Source: Ptychodera flava
Lineage: Eukaryota > Hemichordata > Enteropneusta > Ptychoderidae
Reading direction: 5' to 3'
Assembly: GCF_041260155.1 (NCBI RefSeq)
Contig: NC_091929.1
Location: 47,941,389 to 48,005,388, forward strand
Length of the DNA: 64,000 nucleotides
The notes beneath the pieces were generated by a model, which saw only the letters and a list, made by a program, of their open reading frames with translations, made no database searches and had not been told where the DNA came from. Shown here piece by piece: positions 28,661 to 64,000 of this stretch; the first letter of the stretch is position 1, and every line of letters starts with the position of its first letter. Position numbers and translations under genes: made by a program.

Positions 28661-29798
28661 AGTCATTATAGGGGACAGTTATGCACAATAGTGTTGAATA
28701 AGTAGAAATCATGACAACTTAAATCAATGTGGCTGCTTGGATCATCAATACATTGTTTATTATACCTGAAATTTGCGCCCGAAGGGTGCGCCGAAAATGG
28801 TAATGGCAGAAAATGAAAGTGCCAGGAGGTATTTTTTCTTTCTTCAGTATTCCATAACGTGCACATGCAATTTCAGCTTTGATGCATGAAAAAAGGTGAC
28901 CCTCCCCCATAGGCTTGCACAAATTTTATGATCCTTCAAAATGCTTGCGCGAAAAATGGCGACCCACCCCCAAAAAACACCGGCCCACCCCCCCTGTAAT
29001 TTGTGTCCAGTCCCTAAGTGTAACGCGTTCCACGGACAACATGCATTGTGCATGCCTCGTGGCGCTAGCGCCGCATATGTTGGACGGCGTGGTACAGTGC
29101 ACCATCGCTCCTTTAGTTTACATTTTAAAGGCAAAATTTCACATTTCTCATACTACCTACTCCTTTATCGAATGTTGCAGAATGATATATATCAATACAA
29201 CTGTTGAAATCGTACATGTACATGCCCCGGCACCCCTCCCCCGCTTGTTTGATAGACGAAGCCAGGTCGGGTCGATACTGTATATTAACATAGAACAAAA
29301 ATACATGATGTATTAGATCGAAGAAAATGAAAAGTAATGAAAAATATAGCAAATGAACTTACCAGATTATCCCTTGACATCTTATCGTCCATGCTGACTG
29401 CAAAGAATGTCAATTGTTCCCTGTTAGTATTTGCAGCAAAGTCGGGAAGACTCACTCGTATCCAATGTGACTGCCGTACGTACGGTGAACATCACTACCC
29501 TGCTGTGAATAAGCTCCAAAATCAGCCGTATAGGATTTATCTTCATCAAGCCAGGGGCAGGTAGTGTTTGCTACCGACCCAAGTTTTTTCAACTTCTGAA
29601 GCAAATAATCTATGTGCCACATTTCTACATTTCTAAATAACCTATGTGCCACACTCCTACATTTCTTGTTCGGCTCGAAGTTGTAATGCTCCGCGACCCT
29701 AACTTACCCAAGTGTTCTATATCTTTTCCCCAAAAAGACCCCTAACTTACCAAAGTGTTCTATATCTTTCCCAAAAAAAGACCCCCTAACTTCCAAAG

Positions 29799-30050
29799 TG
29801 GTCTATACAAGCCCCTGCACAGGTGGTCTATACAAGCCCCTGCACAAGTGGTCTATACAAGCCCCTGCACAGGTGGTCTATACAAGCCCCTGCACAGGTG
29901 GTCTATACAAGCCCCTGCACAGGTGGTCTATACAAGCCCCTGCGCAGGTGGTCTGTACAAGCCCCTTTACATGTGGTCTATACAAGCCCCTGCACAGAAA
30001 GTGGTCTATACAAGCCCCTGCACAGAAAGTGGTCTATACTGCCCCATTAA
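29799..30050. repeat. 25-bp minisatellite, about ten units
   Basis: Units of GTGGTCTATACAAGCCCCTG followed by CACAG; the last full units gain an extra AAA. All three forward frames are open across it, because a 25-base unit shifts frame every copy and none of the frames contains a stop. The predicted repetitive peptides are therefore artefacts. Confidence 0.95.
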
Positions 30051-33000
30051 CTACTTCCTGCATTTGTATCACAGACAAATGACTTTACTCTGGAATCTAT
30101 AATTCAATTACCACCAAATATTCACATATGCAGGCTTTTGATGACAAACTGAATATTGTGTGTTTCAGCATGCTGTAGGGAGACAGCAAGAACTGTATTT
30201 GATATATTGCATAGAAATATTGAAAACATTATCAACAGGTGCTAACAGGTGCAGCAGTGCTCCCGATACTAATTGGCATACTTGTTTGTTTTTTATGAAA
30301 ATATATACATGTACAGTGTACAACTTTTCAAGACAAAAATAGTGACAAAATGCTTCTAGATCTTGTTTAATTATTGTTAACATTAGAACAATTGGATGAC
30401 ATTAAAATGTTATTCAATTTCATTGAATTACCCACCAAACCTTGGAATTGTAAAAAAAAGGGAAGCAAAATATTTCATATCCCCCTTCAGGCAGAGCAAA
30501 ATTTTCAAGTCCCCCTCTACTACCCCAAAAGTTTTCGACTCCCCCTCATTTTTGTGAACGCAGCCATACACTGCAATGGAAAATGTGCAAATACCATCTT
30601 TCTATGCAACTGATTTACTTGTAATAACGAAAGCAGTCTAGATGTTTGTCAGTGATGTCACCATAGTTTGCTTAACTCACATGGATAACTAAGCTGTATA
30701 TATGGTGTATTTGCAGACATCTCTCATTAGCAAACAATCATCAAGCAAACTATTTTTAAACAACAAAAAATAAAAACATTAATTTGCACCTACAGGGTAT
30801 AATTTCAATGAAAAGTATTTCATTATTGAAATAAGAATGTGACATGTGACATAAGAAGATTTACAGGAAGATTTATAATAGTAGAGGTATAATTGCTCAC
30901 TCATGATAATTTTGATATTTATAGTGTGGTGAGTGTCAACTGCACCTGCTTGCCACTAATTATGCTGAAGTGCTTTCAGCTTTCTAAACAGTCTGGATAT
31001 CTTATCTATGAATAGCCTGAACTGAAATTCACTATTTCACAGTAACAATGTTGACAATTACAGGCTGTGTTAAATAGATGAATACAGACATTTTGACATA
31101 CTTTAGCCAACAGAGTAGGTGATAAACAGAACAAAATTTCCAGAAAAATTGAAATCTTGGAGCTGCATACTCTGAATATCATTTGGCTTGAAACAGGTTT
31201 CTAATATTTTGTCACTCAAAAAATCTCTTTGGCTCAAAGTTGGTAGTCAGCAAAGATTTTTTGACCAAAAACAGGAAAAACTGACCCAAAATACAAATAT
31301 GCAAAATCACTGCAATTTGACAAACCTGAAATGTAACCCCTTGCAACCTGCACATCAAATTTCAAACTTGTGCAACAAACTCTTTTTAGAGATTTTTTGA
31401 CCAAAAATGGGAATTGTCCCTGACTTTCCGCAATTGTTCGAACAAAGTCTGGTTACCTCAAACCACATACCAAATTTCAGACCAATAGGACAAACGATTT
31501 CAGAGTCGAAGATTTTTTGACAAAAAACCAACAAAATTGCTGGAAAGTACAAATATGCAAAATTTGAACTTCAGTTATCCCTAAGAGCCTGCAACTGAAC
31601 TAGCAGTTCCTGAAAAGAAGATGAATGTTGATGGAACACAGAGGATGGAGGACTGAGGACAATCCACTTATCTGAATAAAGCTCTGTGTCATTGACAGCA
31701 GGCTAAAATCTCACTAACGAAGCAGTCTGTAAGAAGTGTTGTGCTTTAGGAGCAAAATTAGTGTGAAAGGAAGATATTGTATAGTACTGATAATCACTAC
31801 ATGAAAGATGAAACACACATGCAAAGAAAATATTTGTAAAGGCATTTTTCCATCAAAAGTCACAATACTCAACATCGTCAAACTCTAAGGTGATGTTGAA
31901 CTTGTTCACCCATAATGCAACTAACATTATGTAACTTGACACCCCCTGAAAAAGAACTCACGAAAGATGATACAGTTCAAACTGAAATATATAGAGATCT
32001 CTTGCATGTGATAAAAAGAAATATGTTTGAATGAAATCTTATTTGAAATTCACAATGTTTGTGCTTGCAATTCAGTGAGAAGACTCAAAATCACCAACAA
32101 AGTATTGCTGTTTTTCTGTATTGCCCTTTGCATGATAAAAAATTAAACAGATAGCAGGCCATCACATTGACATTTCAGATCTTATCACATTTGAAGAAAA
32201 TTACTGGACATACGTGGGTCATGGTGCACTTTCCTCAGTTCACACCTGCCAAAGTAATAGCTCCAGACATGAAAATAATAATGGCTGGCAAATTTTGATA
32301 ATATCAGAAAGAAAGTAACATTGCATATATGTATGCTCCAATACATTGTCCTTGTGTCTAGGGATTAAAAAGCTATTTAAGTTTGTCAGAATTACATCAT
32401 CCTATCAATTTTACTCCTTTGTACATGTATGTATCATTTATATGAAGATGCAATCCACATGGGGGTTGGACTAATCATACCAGTGTGATAATTAATATGA
32501 TCCTGCATTTGCATTGCCTAGGAGTAGTCTATAGTGATAGTGAAACTGTAGTCTCCTGTAAATGTTTGCTTTCCTAATGCTATGGCTCAGCTTTTAACAT
32601 GGCATTTCAGTTATTTCCAGTCCCTGTTGTACAAAACTTTTCCCTGCACTAGGTATTTTTCAGCTTCAGACTTTGTTACTGTGACAAAAAGTGCTTGTTA
32701 TGGCTTCTTCCTCAGCCTCAGTCGGTGGTACTTTTCATCCATGAATGTAGCATGCTTCCTTCCTATGGAAAGGTAAGAAATGAGAAATTGAACAATTTAA
32801 AAATTAGAGACATGAGGACAATGTACTTTGATCATTGTTTGAAACTCTTTTCATGCTCAGGATGTCAGTTTGTTTAATCCCCTTTTCCAAGGTGGTATTT
32901 TTTTCTATGGTTTGTCTATGGAGCCTGTTAGAAAGAGGATTATATGGAGTCAAGATACTGCCAGGCATCAAAATTGGTGTTGTTTAATGATAGCTTACAC

Positions 33001-49984: not shown

Positions 49985-51175
49985 AATTGAACTGACAATT
50001 ATTTATTATTATTTATTTCTTAAAAGCGCACTCCACTTCGTCTCAGTGCTCTGTACATTATACAATAAAAGGAGGTAATTAAAATCACAGATCACAAAAC
50101 ATACTATAACAATCTCTAAAAAGACAAGTTTTCAAGTATCGTTTAAATGTGTCAATTGAAAACTCTAGGACAGAAACATCTAAAGACAGATCATTCCATA
50201 AAATCGGGGCAGCCACTGAAAAGCCCTAAGACCATAATTTGTAGTAGTGTACCTTGTATCATGCCTAGTTAAAAGAACTTTATTCGACGAGCGAAGATTG
50301 CGATGAGGTACTTGGATATCTATCAATGACGTAAGGTAATCTGGACAGTTGCCAATGAGTATTTGAAAGTAAGGAGGTTAATATTGAACTTAATCCTTTC
50401 CCTTACTGGCAACCAATGAAGTCTAAATAATACAGGTGTAACATGTTCAAATTTTTTTGTACGAGTAACCAGTCGTGCTGCAGCATTTTGCACAGACAGA
50501 ATTTTGTCGAGGTGATAATTTTGAATACCATAAAGAAGACCGTTACAATAGTCTAATTTCGATGTGACAAAAGCATGGACCAATTTCTCTGTCGTATTTG
50601 CATCAATCAAGGAACGAATTTTACCTAATTTATACAAGGCAAAAAAGGCCGATTTACATAAGTTATTTACATGACTAGACATAAAACCGTCAGAGTCAAG
50701 TAACACTCCTAGGTTTCTAACTGATGTTGATGGAATGATATCACATGAGCCGACGCTCAAAGATTCAAGTTTTGTACTATCCTTGCGAAAACGTGATGAA
50801 AATTGTATGACTTCGGTCTTATTATCATTTAAAAACAACATATTTGACGTCATCCATTGACGAATATTCGCTACACACTGTTCAAGATCTAACCTAACGT
50901 CCTCAGGACTCTTACAAACAACATAAATCTGGGAATCGTCTGCGTAAAACATGTAATCTAAACCCTGAGCGGAAATAATGTCATCTAAAGGACTAGTGTA
51001 CAAAGTGAAAAGGATGGGCCCAGTACAGAACCTTGGGGAACACCATACCTTAAAACAGCACATTCTGAAATAGTTGAATTAACAGAAATACGCTGAACCC
51101 GGTCTGTCAAATATGATCTCAGCCACTGAATCACTAGACCGGATATTCTAAACTGACAACCGGCAAGTAGTTTAA
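49985..51175 (-). mobile_element. CR1/Jockey-like LINE nested in the L1-type LINE
   Basis: Open minus-strand frame 50323-51063 (246 residues): GPILFTLYTSPLDDII, DYMFYADDSQIYV (catalytic YADD intact), FLNDNKTEVIQFSS, SVRNLGVLLDSDGFM, LDYCNGLLYG and VQNAAARLVTRTKKFEHVTP with LHWLPVRERI. All are standard CR1/Jockey RT and tail blocks. It is 5'-truncated (no endonuclease). It splits the host LINE's ORF2 between conserved blocks. A TTATT-rich 3' tail is seen near 50000-50030. Confidence 0.88.
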
Positions 51176-51195
51176 TTCTTCAATTATTTCAAGCT

Positions 51196-53565
51196 TTACA
51201 TCAAAGGTGATTCCAAGTAGAGTGAGAGGTTCGTCAGACCATTGAATATTTTGTTTTGTTTCCAGCTGTTCCCCACAGCAGGCTTTTGAACCAAACCAAA
51301 TCGCTTTAGTTTATCAAAGTTTGGACAGAGACCAGAGATTAAAGAAAACTTTTCGAATATGTTAAGGGCCTCCTGCAATGACCTTTGTGAACCATCTAAG
51401 AGTAAACACGAATCATCAGCATACTGACCTAGCAGGAATTCTTTCTGACTTATGTAAAAACCTTTAACGTGGGAGACCTTCTTATTGAGGCTGCCAAAAG
51501 CTCGACTGCTGTAATGAACAGGTAAGGCGACAATGGGTCACCCTGTCGAACTCCTCTATGAAGATCGAAAAATTGTGGAAAGTTCCCATTATTTATTACA
51601 CAACTGTTTATATTTCTATAACACATTTCTACCCATTTACAGAAACTTTCACCCAACTTTAAATATTTCAGTACTTTTAACATTCAGTCCCATTCTATTG
51701 AGTCGAAAGCTTTTCGAAGTCGATCAACAACATTAAACCCGGCAAATTCTTTTCTTTGGCCGTGCATAAAACATCATAGACGAGTCTGGTTTTCTCCCAA
51801 TAAATCGCCCTTTCAAAACCCCTTTTGATTTTCATGGATAATATCGGGTAACACACTTTCATTCTATTGGCTAACACTGTTGATGCAATCTTATAATCTG
51901 TGTTTAATATAGTTATTGGTCGCCAGTTCTTTAAAAGTTGCCTGTCTTTTTTTTTTGTTTGGCAAACATGTAATTATACCTTGTTTTTGTGTTATTTAGA
52001 ATTCACCTGAATGGAGAACTTGATTTAATGACCTCGTGACGAATTTCCAATTGTCACCCAGAACATTTTATAAAACTCTGGTAGAAAGCCGTCTGAACCT
52101 GGACTTTTATTATTTGACATACCTTTCAATGCTTTTGTACATTCTTCAATTGCCAATGCACCCTCTAATTTTGACTCTGCTCTACATTAAGTTTAGGGAT
52201 ATCTTCATGTTCTGTCAGAAACACACTGTCGATTATGTTCTCACGACCTCGTTTACTAGTATACAGTGCTTCATAATATGATTTTTGTGTCTTTAAAATT
52301 TGTTGTTGTTCTGTTACAACTTTATCTTTTTCGATCAGTTTATATATGATTTATTAACATACTGTCTTTTCTTCAAGCGAATAAAAATATTTTGATGGTT
52401 TTGACCACCGTGCTTTTGAGCGCAAAATTGCTCCTTCTACTTTAATTTGCCTTAATTTCTCGACTGATAGCTTTTTTGATTCTAGTTTTTCTAGATTTTG
52501 TGCAGTGGGGGAATCTGTAAACTCTCGCTCAAGATCTTCTATTTCTCTTTCTAATTCTCTTTCTCTTGCTTCTCTTTCTCGTTTTTTCCTACTGGCATAT
52601 GATATGGAGGCACCTCTAATTTTCAACTGTATCATTTCCCATAACACCTGGTCAGGTATTGTGTATTTTTAATCTTCCTTGGTCGATTCATCGACCCAGG
52701 AAGATGAAAAATACACAATAATTGTGATCACGGTAATCGTTGAGAACTTCCCTAATAGTTTCATTGACTAAATTGATGTAATTGTGATCATTTAAAAGGG
52801 AGGTGTTCAGGTTCCAGAAACCTTTCCCTCTGCTATGATTGATAATAGAAACACTAAGCAGTATAGGTGCATGATCTGTTCTATACCCTGGGGAAATTTG
52901 ACATTTCTCTGTCATTGAGGCGAAATCTGGAGAGGTTAAGAAATAATCTAATCGACTTTGTATTAGAGTAATTTGGATTTTTCCTTCGCCATGTGTATTT
53001 TCGCTTGTTTTCATTCCGTGCACGCCAAACATCTATTAAATTAAAATCTGAACACATCAAATCCACTGCTCCTCTTGCACCAGGATTTACGTAAGTTCTA
53101 TAGCCAAATGTATCTAGTTCATGATTTCTAACAACATTCCAGTCACCTACTGCAATGATGAAATTATTTTCAAACATTTCTATATCTGCATGTAATGTTG
53201 AAAAGAAAACTGGTTCGTCGCTGTTTGGGCCATAAAGACTTGATAACGTGAAACGTTTCTCCATGATTGTAATATCCAATACAATATATCTCCCCCAGGG
53301 TCACATTTAATTTTGTTCATTTTAAACTCAACATTTCTTGCAAACAAGATAGCAACTCCTCTACTTGTACTCAACGCTGAACTGAAATAACATGGTGCAC
53401 CCCATTCATTACGCCATCTATTACATCATCATCCACAGAATGTGTTTCTTGTAAACAACAAATAGAAAACCGTTTTTTTTTCAGCCAAAGAAAGAGGTCT
53501 TTACGCTTCTTATAATCTTTTAAATCACGGACATCCATAGAAATGATCTCTAACTTAACAGACAT
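51196..53565 (-). pseudogene. LINE ORF2, endonuclease and most of RT
   Basis: Endonuclease (53565-52881): SVKLEIISMDVRDL, CCLQETHSVDD, FIIAVGDWNVV, YRTDHAPILLSV are the blocks of apurinic-type LINE endonucleases that nick target DNA; the final SDH-like element is seen as TDHAP. Then a Lys/Arg/Glu-rich connecting coil near 52380-52620 and RT blocks SIEW-like (51700), GLMLLIDFEKL (motif A region) and RGVRQGDPLSPYLFI (motif B region). The catalytic FADD block lies in a degraded section near 51400. Several frameshifts. Confidence 0.82.
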
Positions 53566-53904
53566 GAGGGTCAGGAAAACGGACGAAACAAAGCACTAGC
53601 CCTCGGGAAGAGCGGGAGAAAAGGAGAAAAAAATACGAAAACAGAGGGAAAAAAACAAAAAAAAACACAGAAAAGGAAAACAAAAAAGCGAAAAGGCATC
53701 GCAACAAAGACGCTAACGACAGAGCCGTACTCATTTTGTCAAAAAAACCACAAAAATTGACATAAAAAAGGCTCCGCCATGAAACTTGGTTTGCTTGTAT
53801 TGTCTACTAAAAATTTAACGCACTTCAAAGTTTTGTTGCCAAGTATTTCTGCCAAAAATAGACTCACTTCAAAATTATGTAACCACTCCAAGTTGAAAAT
53901 TAGC

Positions 53905-54030
53905 ATTTCAATACTGGCGTTGGTGGCGCATTACCAGATGTAAACTCAAATAACGCATTATTCAAGAAGTTCACGGCTTTTATTAAATAAATAAATACAT
54001 AGATACTATTTTAGCAGTCATATATTAGCA
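53905..54030. repeat. 190-bp dispersed repeat, inverted copy B
   Basis: Reverse complement of the repeat at 48505 and 55157, from the CCAACGCCAGTATT side to the ACTGCTAAAATAG side. It lies between ORF2 and ORF1 of the LINE. Confidence 0.8.
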
Positions 54031-54249
54031 CATTTACATTTTTGAATTTTCAAATGCTTTGAGAGGCACAAAAACATTAGCGGACAAAGACTTCAAGAAA
54101 CGTTTTGGGATTTAGACAATATAAAGATATAAACATGGAGGGGAAAAATGAAAAGACCGCTTACATGGCTTAAATAATCTAGGAGATGTTTTGACGGGGC
54201 CGGTACTGGCACCCATCAATATAAAGCTTGCCATTTCTAAAGGAAATCT

Positions 54250-55016
54250 TCTTTTTCTCTTTTCTGGCAGCATCCATGACGGGCTTCAGTTGTTTTCTTC
54301 TTTCTAAGTCTTCTCCATAGGAAGGTCATTGGTTACAAAAATTCTGTCCCTTCCAAAACGATTCTTGCTCTTCTGAGAATATCAAACTTCTGCGGCCTAT
54401 TGTGTAGTCTTACAATGATCTGTCTTGGCCTTGTATTTCCTTTAAAACCAGTTCTGTGAGCGTTCTCGATTTCACTCATCGAAAGATCAAAATGTAAAGA
54501 CAGGATTTCTCGTGTAATGGTCATGGTATCTTCTTTTGTTTCTCTTCTACTCCGCCAATGTGCACGTTGAAACTCCTTGAATGTCTCTCATGTCGAGTAC
54601 TATCTTCTTTCAGATCTTTCAACTCATGTTGTGCATTCTCAACGTCAACTTTCTAGTTTACCAGCTGCTTTCTCAGGCCTTCAATTTCATTTTTCAAATC
54701 GGCAACTTCGTCTCCCGTTTATTCGAGTGCTTTCTCAAAGTCCTTTTGCGTTGATTCAACGACTTCAAGTCTTTTTAAAGTTTGGACTATGATTTCGTTA
54801 TTTTCTTTCATGTCGCTTTGTATCTTTGTGACGGTCGACCGCCGAGGACACAAATTTACGGAATTCAGAGTCATCATCGACTATACGCTTATCTTCTGGT
54901 GCAGCACAGAAGCCTTCAAAATCAATTATGCGTTTCGGTGAACCAGGTGTGGCCTGTTCGTTCATTGACGTACCGGTTTTTGCTGAGTTTTTCGTTTTCC
55001 TACCTCCTGACTGCAT
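54250..55016 (-). pseudogene. LINE ORF1 protein
   Basis: The N-terminal part is Lys/Ser-rich and disordered; the middle (about 54570-54790 on the minus strand) is rich in Lys, Glu and Leu in a heptad-like pattern, suggesting a coiled coil; the C-terminal part has SEIENAHRTGFKGNTRPRQI and HNRPQKFDILRRAR, the RNA-binding domain of L1-type ORF1 proteins. It would form trimers and coat LINE RNA. Frameshifts divide it. Confidence 0.75.
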
Positions 55017-55156
55017 TCTTCTGTACTCTTTAGCCTTCTTCGTGGTTAATTGAAGTCGTTTTGTTGGTATTGTCTTTGTTTTCGGGCAGAAAAGCGAAGA
55101 TTTTGACGGCGATCACGGAGCCTCCCAAAAAACACGTCACCATGTTATTTCAAGAT

Positions 55157-55320
55157 TAAAATGACTGCTAAAATAGTATCTATGTATTTATTCATTTTAA
55201 TAAAAGCCGTGAACTTCTTGAATAATGCGTTATTTGAGTTTACATCTGGTAAGGCGCCACCAACGCCAGTATAGTCCGTTCCCATCCAACATTCGCCGTT
55301 GCACAGCAAACTGCCGATCG
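55157..55320. repeat. 190-bp dispersed repeat, copy C
   Basis: Same orientation as copy A, beginning right after the LINE 5' end (AAAATGACTGCTAAAATAG) and ending CTGCCGATCGAAGCT. Confidence 0.8.
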
Positions 55321-55629
55321 AAGCTTTCGAAATGACTGAACACGGCTGAGTAATAATATGAACAGATTTCAGAACAACTCGCTATTTTAACTTTTTATGT
55401 TATGATTAGGATGAATAGTTTAAAAGTAAATTTCGGATTGTTGACAGCACAGATGAACTGGGAGATGAACTTCAGTTCGTTGAAACTCAACATGTCTAAT
55501 AATTTGTTACATTTTCATAGAATGCCATGCCCTTCTCACACTTCAGATTAGTTCAAGATTGGATTCAAGAATTTCTACCATGGTTTTACAGCACGTGATC
55601 AACAGGATAACTACTTGTATGGTCTGTGA

Positions 55630-55920
55630 TTAGAAAAAGCTTTCGTCCATTTCAGCGAGAAGAAAAAGAAAAAGGAGAATTTTATTGATTGGGTTGAAGA
55701 GAACTGTGACATAAAACATGTTTGTGCGAGACAGTTCAGAAAATTTTATAATGATTTCAAACATTATCCACAAATATTACATTGTAAATTAAGCTTTGAA
55801 TGGTTTAACAAGAATGGTAAAAATTTGTTGTTATATTTTGATGACCAGAAATTTTTCAGTGGACCCATCCTCTACAGTGCACATGTAATTTATGCGCAGC
55901 GACCTTTAACTTACCTGTGA
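55630..55920 (+). CDS. Unrecognised open stretch before the viral-like cluster
   Basis: About 96 open codons without an ATG, following a stop at 55627-55629. It encodes a Lys-rich start, then FIDWVEENCDIKHVCARQFR and KLSFEWFNKNGKNLLLYFDD. The composition is protein-like, with aromatic and charged residues, in contrast to nearby sequence. It may be an exon or a broken gene at the edge of the viral-like element. I do not recognise a family. Confidence 0.35.
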   Translation, partial: LEKAFVHFSEKKKKKENFIDWVEENCDIKHVCARQFRKFYNDFKHYPQILHCKLSFEWFNKNGKNLLLYFDDQKFFSGPILYSAHVIYAQRPLTYL

Positions 55921-56127
55921 TGTCATAACACAGGTCTGAAATTCTACAGTTTTCATGAAAAATTTCTGCAGAGTTTTTTCTGAACTATCCGTCAACTTGT
56001 CCACCCGATAGATAAAATTTTAGAAATTTCCTCTGAACTTAAAATATGCTGGAAGACCATTACTTCAAATAAAATGAGCCGTTTTAAATAAATAACACTG
56101 ATATCCAAAGTGTTCACACTTTTATCT

Positions 56128-56534
56128 TTATGTAAAAAATGTGGTTCCGGAGTTGTTCTCTACTCTATTCCCACCAACAAAACATTCAATATTCATTTCA
56201 TTACGATCTTTATCGATACTTATAATAATATCACAAGTTGTTCTGTTGTCTGTTTTCATAGCGTAATATCCAACCAAATCATCAAACTCGTCTCCTGTAG
56301 CTAACTTTACACATCTAATGAGAACTGTACCATGTTGAAGTATTTTCATATTATCAATCATCTGTTGATTTGTTGTCTGTAAAGTTAATTCAACTGTCCC
56401 TCCCCCACACTCTTCAGACCCAGTTTCTTTAGAGTGGTGTCCCAAAATAATCTAACTGGAACCCCGCTAGCATTGTATGAGCAATAATTCTCCCCCTCGT
56501 TTATCCACCTTCGCAGTGTATTATCTGATGACAT
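56128..56534 (-). pseudogene. Viral-like protein of unknown role, frameshifted
   Basis: A start codon at 56534 lies inside the end of the preceding fibre-like gene (14-bp overlap, ATGTCATCAGATAA). The first frame is open to about 56400, then coding appears to pass to another frame near a C-run at 56397-56407 and continues to a stop at 56128-56130. The second part looks beta-rich (GTVELTLQ, TVLIRCVKLATGDEFDDLV, CDIIISIDKD). Position after a fibre-like gene suggests a structural or attachment role, which is inference only. Confidence 0.5.
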
Positions 56535-57057
56535 TATTGTTGAAAGAGGTTTGATCTTGAGGTGAATCGGTTATACCGAGTAGTGTAATGTATGGCTTAG
56601 GAGTAAGCCAACAATGAAAATCTAGCAACTTATATTTGTTAACATTGCTATCAAAATAAATCACATTTGGAGTTCCTGGCAGTTCAGCAACTCCACCTGC
56701 AATTTCACTATCCAATATATCTAAGATGTTACGTGGTACATTATAAGGCATGAATTTCTGACTATCCGAATCCCATGTCAGGGCAAAAGGAGTAGGATCA
56801 TTTGAAGCCTTTGTAGCGTCTATTGTGATTTCATCGACGTCTTTCAGTTCAGAAAATTCTACAGCATGTATGTGTTTCTGCGCTGTTGCGGGCGATAAAA
56901 CAAAAAGTTTTTCACGGTCCTTGTATCGAAGGACGTAATCCTTATTATGATTACCTGCTATCTTAGTATTATTGTTAACTTTAACATCACTCAGATCTTC
57001 GAGCTCGAGATTTTGTACGTGAATTGCACCTAGACCGAAGTTACTTGGGCCAGACAT
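56521..57057 (-). CDS. Fibre-like candidate protein
   Basis: Start chosen at the ATG at 57057, 7-18 bases after a TATA motif (CCTATATACAGT on the plus strand at 57064-57075). About 178 residues. Two related segments, LELEDLSDVKV...YVLRYKDREKLFV and ELKDVDEITI...FALTWDSDSQKF, match a repeat style common in trimeric viral and phage fibres (L-x-D-V then L-x-W/Y-x-D). The middle part ends with a hydrophobic strand-rich C-terminus (KPYITLLGI). It is divergently transcribed from the 141-residue membrane protein and overlaps the next gene. Function is inferred from pattern only. Confidence 0.55.
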   Translation of the reverse strand: MSGPSNFGLGAIHVQNLELEDLSDVKVNNNTKIAGNHNKDYVLRYKDREKLFVLSPATAQKHIHAVEFSELKDVDEITIDATKASNDPTPFALTWDSDSQKFMPYNVPRNILDILDSEIAGGVAELPGTPNVIYFDSNVNKYKLLDFHCWLTPKPYITLLGITDSPQDQTSFNNNVIR

Positions 57058-57115
57058 AATTATCCTATATACAGTGAAAATTAAAATAATACCTTGTAAT
57101 ATACAATACACAATC

Positions 57116-57541
57116 ATGGCTTCAGCTATAGGAATGACAGTTCTCGGTGCTGTATTAAATGCAACGGCATTCACAGGAGGAAATATTATCGGTCAAAAGC
57201 TTTCTGGGAATGGTGAGGCTCTTATTGAAGAGAAAATTAGACATGATAAGGCATTAGAAAAATTTGAACATGATCGCAACGTCTGGTCAGAAAAAAGATT
57301 ACTCCAGGCTGATTGGGAAAGAGAAAATCAAGCAAAGGACGCGCATGCTGCAGCTGAATTAAGAGATACAGATGCAGAAATCCTGGAAGAAGCAGAAGCG
57401 GTGGCCAACTCTACGTCAGGCCATTCCGAAGGCGAAGCAGTTCAATTCTCAGATTATTATCAGCCCAGTCCTGAGCAAAAGAAATATGAAATGATTTATA
57501 TTGCTGGAGGATTGGTTGTGGGATGGTTTATGCTGCGTTAG
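57116..57541 (+). CDS. Small membrane/coiled protein of the viral-like element
   Basis: 141 residues from the ATG at 57116; an upstream in-frame ATG at 57074 would extend into the opposing gene's promoter. N-terminus is hydrophobic and Gly/Ala-rich (MASAIGMTVLGAVLNATAF), the middle is strongly charged and probably helical (EEKIRHDKALEKFEHDRNVW), and the C-terminus has a membrane helix (MIYIAGGLVVGWFML). I recall similar charged-helix proteins beside viral-type polymerases in invertebrate genomes, but cannot name the family. Its stop codon abuts that of the penton-like gene with no spacer. Confidence 0.65.
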   Translation: MASAIGMTVLGAVLNATAFTGGNIIGQKLSGNGEALIEEKIRHDKALEKFEHDRNVWSEKRLLQADWERENQAKDAHAAAELRDTDAEILEEAEAVANSTSGHSEGEAVQFSDYYQPSPEQKKYEMIYIAGGLVVGWFMLR

Positions 57542-58246
57542 CTACAATAATTCAATACAAAAGCTAATTGGCCAGTTATTGAAATTGACCATGTTTCCAT
57601 CCTGATCTGTTATCCAAATACGCATTGAACTCATATGGTCTGAACCCTTTCTCAATGGTATGGAAATTGAGCCGTTTTTTTCACTTATTTCTTTTATATC
57701 CTGGACGATAAGTATTTGTAAACAGTCCGATACTTTCCCCTGTATGTATTCACCCGAGCCAAATGAAACATAATTTCCAGTAACATCAATGACATCTGAA
57801 TGAACTATGTATTTAGTGACTGTTAAGAAATCTGCTCGACCTGGACTCATAGTACTTTTTATCACGGGGTTGTCCTCAGGTTTATCTGAAAAACCGACGA
57901 GGTTAGCGAAGTTACCTGTAGCATTAAAAAATACTTTAACATCTTTAGCCAAAGTTAGATAAACGCGGTTTGTCGGCAGATGTTTTTCAAAATTAATTTT
58001 TTGCTTCAACCCGATTGCTTTGTTTAACATATCTATATTGTAGTTACCTGGACGTATTGATTTAGTCTTCTTCGGTTGGTCACCTTCTTGGTATTTTAGT
58101 ACATTATTCGTCGATGTTATGTTATGCCATGAATTATATAGTCCACACTCTAGCAGTCTTATTTTAGTAAACTGTGTCATGTCAATGCTAGGGTTAAAAT
58201 TAACAGTAACCGGTTTGCCTGTTTTGCTTACAATCCAAATGATCAT
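57542..58246 (-). CDS. Penton-like / minor capsid candidate
   Basis: 234 residues, complete, starting at 58246 about 8-20 bases after TTGTATATACATT (plus strand 58254-58266). Beta-rich throughout, with alternating hydrophobic pattern (KPVTVNFNPSI, TKIRLLECGLYNSW, HLPTNRVYLTLAKDVKVFF, CLQILIVQDIKEI). The C-terminus MRIWITDQDGNMVNFN followed by WPISFCIELL is a signature I associate with a conserved protein of Polinton-like and related elements, probably a single jelly-roll penton that would sit at capsid vertices. That identity rests on size, strand content, C-terminal motif and company, not on a search. Confidence 0.55.
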   Translation of the reverse strand: MIIWIVSKTGKPVTVNFNPSIDMTQFTKIRLLECGLYNSWHNITSTNNVLKYQEGDQPKKTKSIRPGNYNIDMLNKAIGLKQKINFEKHLPTNRVYLTLAKDVKVFFNATGNFANLVGFSDKPEDNPVIKSTMSPGRADFLTVTKYIVHSDVIDVTGNYVSFGSGEYIQGKVSDCLQILIVQDIKEISEKNGSISIPLRKGSDHMSSMRIWITDQDGNMVNFNNWPISFCIELL

Positions 58247-58264
58247 CTCCGCGTTGTATATACA

Positions 58265-58495
58265 TTACAAAGTATAAGGTTCTGCAGGAATAATATTTTT
58301 CTGTTCAAGGAGATCTTTTGTCACAACCGCAGCAGCAGTCGCACCGCCTAATTTTATCCACCGAGTCAAATTTGGTCGACTTGGATCGCCCATATCAATT
58401 TTCAGAAATTTGCTGGAGATCATTAGATATCCCATCGTAAGACCAGCGATTACAATACCATCGTACATTGTGTTTACAACTGTTTTAGTATCCAT
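58265..58495 (-). CDS. Small membrane protein
   Basis: About 76 residues from the ATG at 58495, preceded by AAGTATATAAAAT on the plus strand (58506-58518). An upstream ATG (58567) would add a hydrophobic N-terminus but lies inside the neighbouring gene. A membrane segment YDGIVIAGLTMGYLMI is followed by a polar stretch (DMGDPSRPNLTRWIKLGG) and a second hydrophobic Ala-rich section. Between two structural candidates in the same direction; function unknown, perhaps a capsid-associated or membrane-modifying peptide. Confidence 0.55.
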   Translation of the reverse strand: MDTKTVVNTMYDGIVIAGLTMGYLMISSKFLKIDMGDPSRPNLTRWIKLGGATAAAVVTKDLLEQKNIIPAEPYTL

Positions 58496-58553
58496 GATTG
58501 CTGACAAGTATATAAAATAGAAAAATAAAATAATTACGGAATTCCTTACGGAG

Positions 58554-59051
58554 TTAATCCATCTCATACAATGTAGAGGAGCCGGGACTTGGTTCCGTTC
58601 TGGAGGGAGAAAACTTACTTTCCGCTACGGGCTCTGTTTTTGTCGCTTTCTGATTTTGCTCATCTTTCCAGAGGGGACAATTATGCCGAGCACGTCCAAA
58701 ATATAGCCCTAATGCAGTCAATGAAACTCCTATAATTCCTAAAACAAGATAACATTTATTATACCAGCTATCACACTGTTCTTTCGTCGTAGGCGGTAGG
58801 CTTATACAGTTTGTCGCTACCGCATCGCTATCATTAATCATTGCTTTTCGTTTCTTCTCCTTGTTTTGCCTGTTCCATTCTGCTAATCTCTTGCCGGCTT
58901 CCACTCTCCCTGGATGCTTCGTCGGTAATGTAATTTTCTCTATATTGCGCTCGTTCCAGAGGGTAGTCGTCGGAGTCGGCAGAGCCGTTTCCGTTTGCTG
59001 AGTCGGTGTTGGAACCGTTTGCTGAGTCGGTGCTTGCGAAGTTGAATCCAT
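58554..59051 (-). CDS. Membrane protein with Pro/Thr-rich start
   Basis: 165 residues from the ATG at 59051; GTATTATATTAAG lies just upstream (59061-59073). Residues 5-35 are repeats rich in Pro, Thr and Gln (PTPTQQT twice). Next is PGRVEAGKRLAEWNRQNKEK with a basic KKRK, which could bind nucleic acid or act as a nuclear signal. A membrane helix follows (CYLVLGIIGVSLTALGLYFG), then a Ser/Glu-rich tail. I recall the RVEAGKRLAE phrase from proteins of similar elements. Role unknown. Confidence 0.6.
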   Translation of the reverse strand: MDSTSQAPTQQTVPTPTQQTETALPTPTTTLWNERNIEKITLPTKHPGRVEAGKRLAEWNRQNKEKKRKAMINDSDAVATNCISLPPTTKEQCDSWYNKCYLVLGIIGVSLTALGLYFGRARHNCPLWKDEQNQKATKTEPVAESKFSPSRTEPSPGSSTLYEMD

Positions 59052-59122
59052 TTATTTCGGGTATTATATTAAGCCCGATTTTTTAAAATTTAAATGTTTA
59101 CCTGTAATTAAACCGGTGAAAA

Positions 59123-59665
59123 CTAGAGCAAGTAGGGGCCCCATGTGTAGGCTATCCGTCCTGATAATCGTTTTATATCAATGTTAAGAATAAAATCCTT
59201 TTTAAGATCAGTGGCATAGTTATCTCGGTCATCGATTGGAACTACCTGACTTATTGCTCTTGCTCCTAGATCTATGAAACTTTGAGTGATATTATCACTT
59301 ATAAGAGAACTGTATTTCGCTTCATAGACTTTAAAGGCTCGTGTTATGAATTCATCTTTCCACGTTTCCACTTCTCTAACTGGAATCTCCTTACCAAAAA
59401 ATAACTTACTTTGACCACTTGCGATGACACAGAGTAGTTTTTCACGTTTCGTCTCTATTATGGATCGAGCGTCCGACGCTGCGGTTGGTAGTGCCGCTGT
59501 CGTATTTGCCGCTGCCGATGTCTTTATTAAATTCTCCATTGTTTGCAGTATGTTATCTATTCTTAGTAAAAAATAAAAAATTCGTTTAAACCTGAATCCG
59601 AAATATAGTATTAACATAGTCTGGAATGTTAGTACGATTCTGAAGTATGGAAAATTCTCCTCCAT
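59123..59665 (-). CDS. Conserved-looking protein of unknown role with N-terminal membrane helix
   Basis: 180 residues from the ATG at 59665, sharing a bidirectional TATA motif (CTGTATATAG at 59675-59684) with the 456-residue protein; an internal ATG at 59539 would give a 138-residue soluble form. Residues about 9-34 are hydrophobic and aromatic (VLTFQTMLILYFGF and following). The rest is helical and charged, and ends RLSGRIAYTWGPYLL. No catalytic motif is recognised; in particular I see no adenain-type protease pattern. Confidence 0.55.
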   Translation of the reverse strand: MEENFPYFRIVLTFQTMLILYFGFRFKRIFYFLLRIDNILQTMENLIKTSAAANTTAALPTAASDARSIIETKREKLLCVIASGQSKLFFGKEIPVREVETWKDEFITRAFKVYEAKYSSLISDNITQSFIDLGARAISQVVPIDDRDNYATDLKKDFILNIDIKRLSGRIAYTWGPYLL

Positions 59666-59674
59666 TAAAATCTA

Positions 59675-59684
59675 TCTGTATATA
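59675..59684. promoter_or_regulatory. Bidirectional TATA-like motif of the viral-like cluster
   Basis: CTGTATATAG lies in the 31-bp gap between two divergent start codons (59665 minus, 59697 plus). Close variants precede other starts of the cluster: 57064-57075, 58254-58266, 58506-58518, 59061-59073, 61057-61067 and 61652-61663. It is near-palindromic, so it could serve both strands. Confidence 0.55.
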
Positions 59685-59696
59685 GAAACATGAATC

Positions 59697-61067
59697 ATGA
59701 GTACAGACTTATTCCCAGTTGCTTTTCAATTGAATAAAACCGCTGGCGGACCGACAGTACAGCATGCTGATATTCCTTCCAAACCGAATGACATAAAACC
59801 TATTCTCATGGACTTAGAAATATATGTAACGCCGACAGAAAAATTTACTTTTCATCCAAGGGATATATTTAAAGATAATGTAATCACTCATCGAACAGCA
59901 AAAGAAAGTAATGTCTGGCTGGGCAGCCCGCACATGAAATATTGGGACCACCAATTAAATTTCGCCGTATGGTGCAGCACGACTGGTTGTGGTATATCAT
60001 TCGCCCATCTCTTCGATAAGAAATTTCCGCCGCAAATACAATCATTCTGTCGTTTTCATGTATACTTTACAATACGTTGTATCCTTCATGAAATGGGCGT
60101 TGCACTTCCAGACGATACTGTCTTCAAAGCCGGCGACAATCCATACAATCTCGTCCAATATGAACTTCTATGTACAGAATTTGGAAATATAAGCCCAACG
60201 AAGTCTGACTTTCGTTATCGTTTCGGTCAAAACTCAGGTCTTGGATATGGTTATATATATTACACTAATCGTGGCCCCGTTCGACAGCCAAAAGCAATAT
60301 ACAATGGTCATGACTTTTTCCTCTCCGCCGACGGAGGCGTTTATTACACACATACAATTTTTGGAAAGAAAAAACATGTACTGCCCGACAAAGACCGACC
60401 ACACTATTATTTCTTCACAAATGACGGATCGGAGGGACAATACAATAGTTTCGTCCCTATAAAGGGAGACAGGGGACTAACAAAGGCCGGTCTCGCCCGC
60501 CTCAATGAAAGCCTTGAAGCCTACGTATATTGCATACTCGGCGCACAAGCAAATATTCGCAGTACCATTGTGGGCGATACTGGCAGTGCAGAGCAAGTAA
60601 GAAAAGAATTCGGCGTTCTCCTCGAAGATGAAATTCGTAATACAGACAAAGTAATCAGTTATAGGCGATACCAAGACACAATAACAAATACTGGTGTCAA
60701 ACTTGATATGGCCGTTTCGCCCAATTTACTTCTCTTGCCGTCTGAAATGGTTATTCTTTCAGGCCCGGCAATCGCAGGTTATAATAATGAATTGCAATAC
60801 GCAACTGAATCTATGGTCTTCGGGGTGAATGGTGATATAAACACGGAAGTTCGAGAAAGTGCTATACATGAGATGGAAGGGGAAGAGGATCCCATGAAGT
60901 GGCAGGACGCTGTGCAGCCTCACAATGACACGAGTCGGATTACCCTATTGCCTTCGGAACGGAAGGCAGCATCCGTGACAGTCGCCGGCGCGGATCTTAT
61001 TCACGAATATAGCAAAATTGGTTTGTTATCTTTAGCCATATTCATTACATTTATGTACAGTATATAG
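59697..61067 (+). CDS. 456-residue candidate major structural protein
   Basis: Largest intact frame of the cluster. Start at 59697, 13-22 bases after CTGTATATAG. Distinct blocks: ESNVWLGSPHMKYWDHQLNF and WCSTTGCGISFAHLF, then FCRFHVYFTIR, RFGQNSGLGYGYIYYTNRGP, LNESLEAYVYCILGAQANIR and LLLLPSEMVILSGPA. It ends with a short hydrophobic tail (IGLLSLAIFITFMYSI). Size and position beside the ATPase fit a major capsid protein, but it does not resemble the F54H12.2-type capsid protein of common Polintons, and a C-terminal membrane tail is unusual for one. I have a weak recollection of similar uncharacterised proteins in cnidarian genomes. Function unproven. Confidence 0.6.
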   Translation: MSTDLFPVAFQLNKTAGGPTVQHADIPSKPNDIKPILMDLEIYVTPTEKFTFHPRDIFKDNVITHRTAKESNVWLGSPHMKYWDHQLNFAVWCSTTGCGISFAHLFDKKFPPQIQSFCRFHVYFTIRCILHEMGVALPDDTVFKAGDNPYNLVQYELLCTEFGNISPTKSDFRYRFGQNSGLGYGYIYYTNRGPVRQPKAIYNGHDFFLSADGGVYYTHTIFGKKKHVLPDKDRPHYYFFTNDGSEGQYNSFVPIKGDRGLTKAGLARLNESLEAYVYCILGAQANIRSTIVGDTGSAEQVRKEFGVLLEDEIRNTDKVISYRRYQDTITNTGVKLDMAVSPNLLLLPSEMVILSGPAIAGYNNELQYATESMVFGVNGDINTEVRESAIHEMEGEEDPMKWQDAVQPHNDTSRITLLPSERKAASVTVAGADLIHEYSKIGLLSLAIFITFMYSI

Positions 61068-61072
61068 ATCAG

Positions 61073-61658
61073 ATGTATGCAACCGTGCCATTCAACATGA
61101 TTGTAACTGGACCAACAAATTCTGGCAAAACAGAATATGTGATGGATCTCCTCACCGGTCCGTACTTAAGGAAATTTGAATATATAGTTTTCATTTGTCC
61201 AACATTCATGAACAATAAAACGTATGATAAAAGATTCATTTTCACAGATGACAACGTATTTGTGTTTCCGGTCGGACTCGATGCTGTGGATGATACACTA
61301 GCCTTCGTACATAAAGAATGGGCCGGCACGAACACTTTAATAATCCTTGATGACTGCGCCTCGTCCAAAGATATGAAGAAGCGCAGTGACTTTTTAGTCA
61401 AACTTGGTTTCAGCGCAAGACACGATGGATTATCTGTCTGGGTTCTGACTCAATAATATACCATTCAGGGAAAACATACAGATGTTAGTACTTTTTTACA
61501 CACCGAGCAAGACAGACAACAAAACTATTATTAAAGAATATGGAATGGAGGTGTCAGAACGGGAAGCCACTTCCCTAATCAGGCAATTGAAAAATACACC
61601 ATTCAGTAAACTAGTATTTCATTTACGGCATCCGTATGACATTCAATTTTTCGTATAA
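61073..61658 (+). pseudogene. A32/FtsK-type DNA packaging ATPase, frameshifted
   Basis: Starts at the ATG at 61073, five bases after the stop of the previous gene, whose stop codon overlaps the TATA motif ACAGTATATAG (61057-61067). Walker A is GPTNSGKT at residues 13-20; Walker B is NTLIILDDC near residue 90; a sensor-like segment LGFSARHDGLSVWVLTQ follows, as in A32-like ATPases that pump viral DNA into capsids. The first frame stops at 61456. The expected C-terminal sequence is open in a different frame from about 61457 to the stop at 61656-61658, so the gene carries an indel there. Confidence 0.85.
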
Positions 61659-61669
61659 TATAGCTAATC

Positions 61670-61812
61670 ATGGAACCTGAAGACAACACTGAAGGTACTC
61701 TTAGAGAATTATATTACAACCTGAAAACTGGTTTTGAGGTGTACAAAAATTATATGACGCCAGCGGACTAAAAGTTACTAAGAAAGAGGTGCAGGAGTGG
61801 TTACAAGCCAAT
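61670..61812 (+). pseudogene. Retrovirus-like integrase, N-terminal fragment
   Basis: ATG at 61670, just after CGTATAATATAG. The first frame gives LRELYYNLKTGFE and stops at 61771; another frame, open from about 61744, gives QKLYDASGLKVTKKEVQEWL. Both pieces match the N-terminal helical region of integrases from Polinton/Maverick-type elements, where YY..PKTGF leads to a helix with VT..EV..WL. An indel near 61740 separates them. Similarity ends at about 61812, where a dispersed repeat begins (ATGGCCGCCAGGTGGCAAT). The catalytic DDE domain is missing. Confidence 0.7.
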
Positions 61813-62160
61813 ATGGCCGCCAGGTGGCAATTTTATTACGATTTTTTGGCCATAGAAAATATTACACTAGCAGCTGCATCATGACTACTTCATCTTGGGA
61901 TGTCATATGGCAATAACATGTATATCAGTTGATAATGAAAGCACTGTGCTAGATGTAATACTTTTTGCAATTTGCTCTTACCATAATATGAAGTTCGGCT
62001 AATGACATCCGGCTCCACCATAATCTGCCGAGAGGTACTCTGGCAACTTAGCGTAAGCAGGTCATCTTGACGGGCACCCAGTATTTAGTGCTTGACAAAG
62101 TGAATGACAAAATCAATACATAGGTCACGGGAATCATGATTAGTCATAGATTACCAGCAA
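61803..62160. repeat. Dispersed repeat that truncates the integrase
   Basis: AATATGGCCGCCAGGTGGCAATTTTATTACGATTTTTT closely matches 63925-63960 near the window end. Its boundary coincides with loss of integrase coding. Confidence 0.65.
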
Positions 62161-62173
62161 ACGTAAATGAAAT

Positions 62174-63260
62174 GGCTATTGACAAAGGTTGAGACGACCC
62201 AAACAAGCCAAAATTAGCCAAACCACCATAAACCACCATAAACGACCCATATCATCAAGTAAACGACCTAAAATAAGCACAGGGATGAAATATGTCTCAG
62301 ATTTCTGGAGAAACCGCCCCAAAAACGGCGAAAACCAGCCGGCATTTTCGATCATTGCAAATTCCTATACATGCCATCAACGAGTTAAGGGGTTCGGTTT
62401 GTTTCTTCAATAGAGGGCGCTGTGCAAGATTGTTAATGCTTTTACAACGTAAAGTGTAGCACAGGGAATTTCCCCGTTGTCGTGTTTAGTGGCTTACCAA
62501 GGAATGAGATCAAAGTTTTTAGTTTATTACATTTTTACAGCTCATTCACATTTTTTTTGGTACCAACATTAATTTACTTGAATAAATTCTACAAACCAAT
62601 TATTAAGATAACATGTGCCGTGGCCCTGGTTCCATACATGTACATACACATACCTGCATATATGTGCATGCATGCATGCATGCATGCATGCACACAAACA
62701 TATATATGCGTGCATGCAGGTTACCATGGAAAGTTGAAGATCTAGCAAATAAATAGCAAATAGATGGCATTGATGGAAAATCATTAAAGAGTCTCTCTTG
62801 GAGCAAAAAAAAGCGCAAAATCTTCCAAAACATAGTTAAACACTAAAAATCGTAGAACTTAACCTTTTTTTCACTCACCTGCACATTATTGGCCGGTGAA
62901 TGAGAGTCTGGAGACCACACGTTTTCGAAAATTCGTCAATTATGCCCCACTAGCACTGCACTGCACAAAGTTTGAAAAAGCGCCCTCCTTCGGTGAGCCC
63001 AGTTACGATGCTGAAGTTATTTTCGTTTTCAGTTGTGTCATCGAAATGAGCCCCACAACTTGGTAATTGATAGTACAAACAACATGGCTGCCCGCAATTC
63101 TGTCGACGGTTTCTCCAGAAGGTGGAGTTTTATTGTATCCCTGAATACCTAGAATGTTTGTTTTAGGTCGTTTACTTGATGATATGGGTCGTTTTTGGTG
63201 GTTTATGCTGGTTTGGCTAATTTTGGCTAGTTTGGGTCGTCTCAACCTTTGTCAATAGCC
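62174..63260. mobile_element. Mutator-like non-autonomous element with 10-bp duplication
   Basis: Inverted ends of about 100 bp, GGCTATTGACAAAGGTTGAG at the left and the complement at the right, about 95 percent alike by eye. The 10-bp sequence TAAATGAAAT directly flanks both ends (62164-62173 and 63261-63270). Long inverted ends with 9-10 bp duplications fit Mutator-like elements. The body has a (GCAT)n run at about 62665-62692 and no transposase. Short ORFs at both ends are mirror images of the repeat. Confidence 0.88.
62665..62692. repeat. (GCAT)n microsatellite
   Basis: Seven or so units of GCAT, self-complementary, inside the Mutator-like element. Confidence 0.9.
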
Positions 63261-63345
63261 TAAATGAAATGTAAAAAGAAATTTTTTTTCTCAATTTGCT
63301 GCGGTCTCAATCAACGATGTATTTTTTTCCTTTCACTGACAACAG

Positions 63346-63512
63346 ATATGCAATACTCGGTTGGTGGTGATGTTACAGCCAGCAGTGAAATAAGTTCAGC
63401 TGCAGTACACACAGAGATGGTTAGAACAATGGAAGACCCTGAAGGTGAAACTACAAGTTTACAACACCACATAGATATAGATATACCAAGTGAAAATTTT
63501 AAAATCACTTAA
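63346..63512 (+). CDS. Possible terminal host exon
   Basis: A pyrimidine-rich stretch TTTTTTTCCTTTCACTGACAACAG precedes an open frame that encodes QYSVGGDVTASSEISSAAVH and more acidic Ser/Thr/Glu residues to TAA at 63510-63512. The balance of residues and the strong acceptor suggest a last exon. It overlaps no recognised repeat. No domain is recognised. Confidence 0.4.
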
Positions 63513-63529
63513 TTGCTTTTTAATGCATT

Positions 63530-64000
63530 TTTAGTCCCCACAGACACCGTCCGGGGGGATATGTTTGACATGTCCTTGCGTCCGTCCGTCCGTCTGTCTG
63601 TCCGTGCGTCAGTCCGTTCACTCAGATATCTCAGAGACGCCTGGAGCGATTTCATCCAAACTTGGTACAAGGATTACCTCATATGTCATACAGATGCACG
63701 TCGATTTGTCTTCTGATATGATCCAACATTCAAAGTTATTACAAGGACATTGACCAATGTCATAGATATGCACGTCAATTTGTTTTGTGATACGATTTAT
63801 TATGATTTTTTCAAGTACAGAGCCATAACTCAGGCATATCTCAACGATTTTATTCAAATTTGGTACAAGGACATTGACCTATGTCATATGTATGCATGTT
63901 GATTTGTTTTGTGATACAATCCAATATGGCCACCAGGCGGCCATTTTATTACGATTTTTTCATGTACAGCACCATAACTCAGACATATTTCAACCGATTT
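63530..64000. repeat. Dispersed repeat with GTCC microsatellite
   Basis: Begins near CCGTCCGGGGGGATATG, runs through (GTCC)n/(GTCT)n and then semi-repeated blocks such as ATCCAAACTTGGTACAAGGA and ACTCAGGCATATCTCAACGATTT, spaced about 160-190 bp. Related to 61803-61860. Continues beyond the window. Confidence 0.65.

What the first reader, a model, noticed from the sequence alone, without database searches (positions are those of the whole stretch)
56128..61812. Compact viral-like gene cluster with unfamiliar structural proteins
The ATPase and the integrase N-terminus place the cluster among Polinton/Maverick- or adintovirus-like elements. The large structural gene does not look like the usual F54H12.2-type Polinton capsid protein, and the cluster includes at least four small membrane proteins. 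This may be a separate or poorly described lineage.
Basis: partly seen in the sequence, partly recalled or inferred. Interest (0 to 1): 0.85.

Follow-up and report, generated by a model that had tools for sequence, protein, structure and literature searches.

The report
Broken endogenous virus with unexplained protein
A stretch of probably eukaryotic DNA carries a broken piece of an integrated Polinton-like virus, and its biggest gene, which looked like a shell protein, belongs instead to a large family of helix-rich proteins whose job is unknown.

Summary
The gene cluster is real: its ORF content far exceeds shuffled sequence. It is a truncated, partly decayed ~5.7-kb fragment of a Polinton/Maverick-like endogenous DNA virus. 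The 234-residue protein has a penton-type fold. The packaging ATPase matches Pfam Pox_A32 but is broken by a frame change. The leftmost gene is also broken. The "integrase start" is too short to test and is cut by a repeat. Polymerase, protease and terminal repeats were not found beside it.

The 456-residue protein is very probably not a double-jelly-roll capsid protein. Its model (pLDDT 79.9, pTM 0.77) is helix-rich with a C-terminal helix. It has no significant match in the viral or PDB structure libraries, Pfam or PHROGs, yet 878 relatives score E<=0.01. The window's copy sits in a small divergent clade.

A TATATA-like motif recurs just before the gene starts. The family's usual C-terminal tail resembles that of a neighbouring gene, though the window's own copy does not fit it.

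Verdict: a known kind of element carrying a conserved, structurally unassigned protein. Its role in assembly is inferred, not shown.

The parts
56131..57057 (-). One broken gene (fibre-like as a low-confidence label), seen as ORF 56521-57174, a stretch in another frame (56570-56400) and probably ORF 56128-56445
   Evidence: tblastn of P0131: residues 4-148 (57%) and 160-216 (65%) in two frames; the product of ORF 56128-56445 itself has no significant match, E 0.30. Only 2 homologues, P0131 and P0132. No Pfam match in P0131 or P0132; no significant PDB match for P0131 (best E 0.22). Internal-repeat test not significant (44 of 500 shuffles).
57116..57541 (+). Small, possibly membrane-associated protein (ORF 57074-57541; first ATG at 57116) with an N-terminal hydrophobic segment and a glycine-rich C-terminal tail ending in Arg
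   Evidence: ORF; hydrophobic segment at residues 10-32 of the ORF, straddling the first ATG at residue 15; tail resembles the tail profile of the 456-aa family, permutation P 0.0013, or 0.013 with the terminal Arg fixed.
57542..58246 (-). Penton-type (minor capsid, vertex) protein, 234 aa, intact ORF
58265..58495 (-). Small ORF (76 aa from an inner ATG at 58495; 100 aa if started at 58567)
   Evidence: ORF; the hydrophobic segment scored in the 100-aa form lies upstream of the inner ATG.
58554..59051 (-). 165-aa ORF with one central hydrophobic segment (residues 100-118)
59123..59665 (-). 180-aa ORF, no significant family match
   Evidence: ORF; no Pfam match, one PHROG at E 0.18; one viral-contig scan found no relative
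59697..61067 (+). 456-aa intact, helix-rich protein with a C-terminal helix (residues 434-455); large uncharacterised family
61073..61655 (+). Packaging ATPase (A32/FtsK type), broken by a frame change: first part 61073-61456, second part within 61449-61655
   Evidence: Pox_A32 E 1.8e-10; second part read on its own, no significant Pfam match (best E 0.15).
61670..61812 (+). Possible start of an integrase gene in two short pieces and two frames, cut by a repeat copy that begins at 61802
Evidence: translations; no Pfam match to an integrase; repeat 61802-61847 / 63915-63960, 91%.
57064..57073 (.). TATATA-like motif between the divergent genes starting at 57057 (-) and 57116 (+)
58255..58264 (-). 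TATATA-like motif before the penton gene
59676..59686 (.). TATATA-like motif between the divergent genes starting at 59665 (-) and 59697 (+)
61059..61067 (+). TATATA-like motif before the ATPase gene; it overlaps the last codons of the 456-aa gene

Best explanation
The cluster is a truncated, decaying fragment of an endogenous Polinton/Maverick-like virus (in the broad sense: a preplasmiviricot relative) inserted among retroelements in a probably eukaryotic genome. It carries part of the virion-making half. SHOWN: a penton-type fold, an A32-type packaging ATPase, several short ORFs, and a 456-aa helix-rich protein of a large uncharacterised family whose model is not a double jelly roll. INFERRED: in the living ancestor the genes were switched on from short TATATA-like promoters just before the start codons. 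The ATPase pumped the genome into a capsid whose facets were built by a major capsid protein lying outside this fragment, and the penton closed the five-fold vertices. The 456-aa protein, encoded directly before the ATPase and probably held in a membrane by its C-terminal helix, most likely acted at the capsid-membrane or packaging-vertex interface during assembly. I give about 0.3 to that last step.
Against: No integrase, polymerase, protease, major capsid protein or terminal repeats were shown in the fragment, so assignment to Polintons proper is not proved. The penton model is only moderately confident: four of five models have mean pLDDT 50.7-61.1. The window protein's own tail does not fit the family tail profile (permutation P 0.34), and its 19-residue hydropathy peaks at 1.51. 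Of 120 relatives, 51 fail the tail threshold (20 of the 25 failures printed still carry an HE-type tail), and 23 have another hydrophobic stretch elsewhere. The motif model forces one site per gene, I saw the motif before testing it, and for two genes I chose an inner ATG; three of nine genes lack the exact core. Its significance is therefore overstated. No relative's DNA was available to check gene order or motif: viral contigs and genome contigs gave none for the 456-aa protein.
Confidence: 0.72

Rival explanations
1. The 456-aa protein is itself the facet-building capsid protein: this lineage replaced its double-jelly-roll capsid protein by a helix-rich, membrane-anchored one.
For: It is the only ORF in the fragment long enough for a major capsid protein, lies directly before the packaging ATPase, and has far more relatives (878) than the penton or the left gene (2). 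No jelly-roll major capsid gene is in the fragment. A 2024 preprint (PMC11071296, passages read) says that some adomaviruses appear to have replaced the hexon with an expanded helical protein.
Against: The fragment is truncated, so the usual capsid gene may simply be lost. A penton is present, and in characterised relatives (recalled) pentons fit into double-jelly-roll shells.
Confidence: 0.1
2. The 456-aa protein is a membrane-anchored enzyme (for example a hydrolase or cysteine protease) that acts in maturation or entry.
For: Many polar residues are invariant in 49 aligned members, among them C98, H121, R127, C159, E161, R173, R268, E310 and Q326, with D171, R288 and R324 nearly so. No protease gene was seen in the fragment.
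Against: No Pfam or PDB sequence relation and no structural match above background.
Confidence: 0.2
3. The 456-aa protein is an entry or fusion factor displayed on a membrane.
For: Single C-terminal helix in the model and a conserved tail in relatives.
Against: No hydrophobic segment reaches the threshold anywhere in the window protein, its N-terminus included (no signal-peptide program was run); no significant match in PDB or BFVD.
Confidence: 0.12
4. The cluster is a chance or composite array: unrelated repeats and a few captured genes rather than one element.
For: Breaks, an adjoining repeat copy and retroelement pieces in the window.
Against: 92% coding density with closely packed genes; a recurring motif before the starts; penton and packaging ATPase are functional partners in known relatives (recalled).
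Confidence: 0.05

Closest known systems
Polintons/Mavericks (class Polintoviricetes), vertebrate Mavericks of PMC8097293
   Same: A32-type ATPase and penton-type minor capsid protein; genes on two strands; uncharacterised conserved genes are described there (pm and pz in the ATPase module, pw beside the capsid genes; section 7 and part 1 of section 14 read).
   Different: No pPolB, protease, terminal repeats or double-jelly-roll capsid gene was found in this fragment; integrase not shown. Whether the 456-aa family equals pz could not be tested: no pz sequence was at hand.
Adintoviruses (PMC11071296, passages and section 16 read)
   Same: Penton-type fold (a Drosophila-associated adintovirus 2 protein and a MELD penton entry are among the BFVD matches).
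   Different: The definition there needs a BLASTP-recognisable hexon and an OTU-bearing PolB; neither was seen in this fragment.
Virophages (mavirus, Sputnik) and Polinton-like viruses
   Different: No relative of the 456-aa protein was found in viral contigs. Mavirus-type elements use a TCTA promoter motif (PMC8547959, passages read), not the TATATA-like motif seen here.

Membership tests
Polinton/Maverick | A32/FtsK-type packaging ATPase | tested here: met
   Pox_A32 E 1.8e-10; gene broken here
Polinton/Maverick | Penton-type (single jelly-roll) minor capsid protein | tested here: met
Polinton/Maverick | Double-jelly-roll major capsid protein | tested here: inconclusive
   The only ORF of that size is helix-rich in the model; the fragment is truncated, so absence is not proof
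Polinton/Maverick | Retrovirus-like (rve) integrase | tested here: inconclusive
   Two short pieces without a Pfam match to an integrase
Polinton/Maverick | Protein-primed PolB | tested here: inconclusive
   None among the 9 cluster ORFs scanned; a DNA_pol_B_2 ORF lies at 199-1725, 54 kb away
Polinton/Maverick | Adenain/Ulp1-type protease | tested here: inconclusive
   No Pfam protease among the 9 cluster ORFs scanned; fragment truncated
Polinton/Maverick | Terminal inverted repeats | tested here: inconclusive
   Within 50000-64000 the one reported pair with arms outside both edges of the cluster is 21 nt at 81% (52487/62959), likely chance; the edges may be lost
Adintovirus (definition in PMC11071296) | Hexon recognisable by BLASTP | tested here: inconclusive
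   No hexon-like ORF seen in the fragment; no adintovirus hexon sequence was available to compare
Adintovirus (definition in PMC11071296) | PolB with OTU-like domain and rve integrase with chromodomain | tested here: inconclusive
   Neither seen in the fragment
F54H12.2-type Polinton capsid protein | Double-jelly-roll fold | tested here: not met
   The model of the 456-aa protein is helix-rich. That the F54H12.2 family has the jelly-roll fold is recalled; a search of the paper library for the name gave 0 papers

The most novel reading that the evidence does not exclude
The 456-aa family is a core, membrane-anchored virion-assembly protein with a fold not yet in the structure libraries. It defines a group of animal-associated Polinton-like viruses that transcribe each late gene from its own short TATATA promoter, and it shares a C-terminal membrane address tag with a second viral protein.
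Probability: 0.2. Interest if true: 0.75.

Novelty: new variant of a known kind. Interest (0 to 1): 0.48.

Why it matters
[quoted passage not shown] A protein with 878 detectable relatives, a fairly confident predicted structure and no significant match in the structure libraries searched is a concrete target. If it is an assembly or membrane protein, it bears on whether such virions hold an internal membrane. A per-gene promoter motif, if conserved, would help to predict genes in decayed copies.

Tried and rejected
Tried without result. No whole genome is held for this window. Scans of viral contigs for the 456-aa protein, the first ATPase part, ORF 57074-57541 and ORF 59123-59665, and of genome contigs for the 456-aa protein and the penton, gave no relatives; only the penton gave 2 distant loci in viral contigs. 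PDB sequence searches gave nothing significant for the 456-aa protein (E 0.75; profile), the penton profile (E 0.39) or P0131 (E 0.22). Padloc and ncbifam were not used.

Rejected: (1) the 456-aa protein as a jelly-roll capsid protein. (2) ORF 56521-57174 as an intact gene, and probably ORF 56128-56445 as a separate one. (3) A second penton at 55681-55866: weak tblastn match to P0130 (E 0.001 in the window; E 1.7e-5 in a 1.2-kb slice), 62 columns at 32%, no ORF of 60 aa or more there; taken as chance, not excluded. (4) A three-repeat fibre shaft: the internal-repeat score is reached by 44 of 500 shuffles, so 'fibre-like' is only a label. (5) A PDB match of the first ATPase part to 7uek (E 0.00053, 37 residues) and a PHROG terminase match (E 0.00023) add little to Pfam.

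Not in print: searches for F54H12.2, polinton/capsid/invertebrate, adintovirus, Maverick/bivalve, polinton/transmembrane, polinton/promoter, Maverick/fusogen, polinton/TATA box, polinton/cnidaria and polinton/AlphaFold/penton showed no title or abstract start that describes the 456-aa family or the motif. Most papers were seen as listings only, listings were cut at 10-25 rows, two papers asked for by id were not held, and subscription papers are missing, so this is weak evidence of absence.

Full report
OBSERVATION. The ORFs at 56128-61812 exist as described. Eight ATG ORFs of 90 aa or more stand against a mean of 0.71 and a maximum of 3 in 200 Markov shuffles of the same stretch; the longest, 456 aa, stands against a shuffled maximum of 168; the intervals I took as genes cover 92% of the span. 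The surroundings hold retroelement pieces: reverse-transcriptase, integrase-core and related ORFs at about 14-21.5 kb and a reverse-transcriptase piece at 50.3-51.1 kb. No whole genome is held for this window, so the host is unknown; a eukaryote, probably an animal, is inferred from the retroelements and the element type.

ATPASE AND RIGHT EDGE. The 127-aa ORF at 61073 matches Pox_A32 (E 1.8e-10). The gene goes on in another frame after a stop, so it is broken here. At 61802 a copy of a repeat begins that recurs at 63915-63960 with 91% identity, which probably marks the cut of the element.

LEFT EDGE. The gene in ORF 56521-57174 is broken: P0131 matches residues 4-148 in that frame and 160-216 in another, from 56570 to 56400. 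ORF 56128-56445 follows on, but its own product has no significant match to P0131 (E 0.30); it is probably the remainder. Only two homologues were found. 'Fibre-like' is a label from gene context; a repeat test failed (44 of 500 shuffles) and no significant family or PDB match was found for P0131. Stretch 55250-56127 was compared only with the fetched proteins and the cluster ORFs; a weak match there is listed as rejected.

TAIL. Among the 120 listed relatives, 111 have H followed by E or D within the last 45 residues, 93 end in Arg, 69 pass a C-terminal hydropathy threshold, and 23 have a further hydrophobic stretch elsewhere; 20 of the 25 failures printed still carry an HE-type tail. A tail profile was built from 85 distinct tails of the 97 relatives that end in Arg or Lys and carry the H motif; the other 23 were left out, so the final Arg is partly chosen. 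The tail of the neighbouring ORF 57074-57541 scores 10.8 against a permutation mean of -22.8 (P 0.0013; P 0.013 with the final Arg fixed). The window's own 456-aa protein does not fit that profile (P 0.34). A shared membrane address is thus a lead, not a result.

PROMOTER-LIKE MOTIF. Nine assumed starts were tested with a model that places one 9-base site per gene. The best sites are TATATA-like and all begin 14-21 bp upstream (score 88.1; 60 dinucleotide shuffles: mean 73.1, sd 3.5, maximum 85.0, none reaching it). The exact core [CG]TATATA[CG] occurs at 7 places in the 64-kb window, 4 of them in the cluster. All 4 lie before gene starts, at 13-20 bp for five genes and 51 bp for the sixth; three of nine genes lack it within 60 bp. 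Two sites lie between divergent pairs. Caveats: I saw the motif before testing it; for two genes (58495 and 57057) I chose an inner ATG, the second of which agrees with where P0131 and P0132 begin; one 'gene' is the untested integrase start. A position this close to the start codon differs from an ordinary Pol II TATA box about 30 bp before the transcript start (recalled) unless transcripts begin at or after the assumed start codons. Promoter motifs shared with giant viruses are described for mavirus-like elements (PMC8547959, passages).

COMPARISON. In vertebrate Mavericks the ATPase gene lies with pPolB, pm and pz in one module, and the roles of pz, pw and pm are not known (PMC8097293, section 7 and part 1 of section 14). 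The 456-aa gene, beside the ATPase gene, could correspond to one of these; this is untested. Cnidarian capsid genes fall outside the main Maverick-Polinton cluster (PMC10120064, passages), which shows that animal elements are more diverse than the standard type.

VERDICT. A decayed fragment of a known kind of element. What deserves attention is the conserved helix-rich protein family and, less firmly, the promoter motif and the tail.

Noticed in passing
window 199-1725 (+): A 508-aa ORF matches DNA_pol_B_2 (Pfam E 4.1e-23): a viral-type PolB piece near the window's left end, 54 kb from the cluster and not shown to belong to it.
   Followed up: partly
window 53911-54021 and 55161-55272: Inverted repeats of about 110 nt (77 and 44 nt blocks, 99% and 91%) enclose about 1.1-1.2 kb just left of the cluster.
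   Followed up: no
window 62174-62279 and 63155-63260: A 106-nt inverted repeat, 95% complementary, lies to the right of the cluster with 875 nt between the arms.
   Followed up: no
window 61802-61847 and 63915-63960: Direct repeat, 91% identical; its first copy begins inside the possible integrase start.
   Followed up: partly
window 13.9-21.5 kb and 50.3-51.1 kb: Reverse-transcriptase, integrase-core and RNA-recognition-motif ORFs, probably of retroelements.
   Followed up: partly
window 29755-30102 (+): An ORF made largely of a short repeated peptide unit.
   Followed up: no
L002 6568-7314 (+): A PLV-like metagenomic contig with a distant penton relative (29% over residues 39-120).
   Followed up: partly
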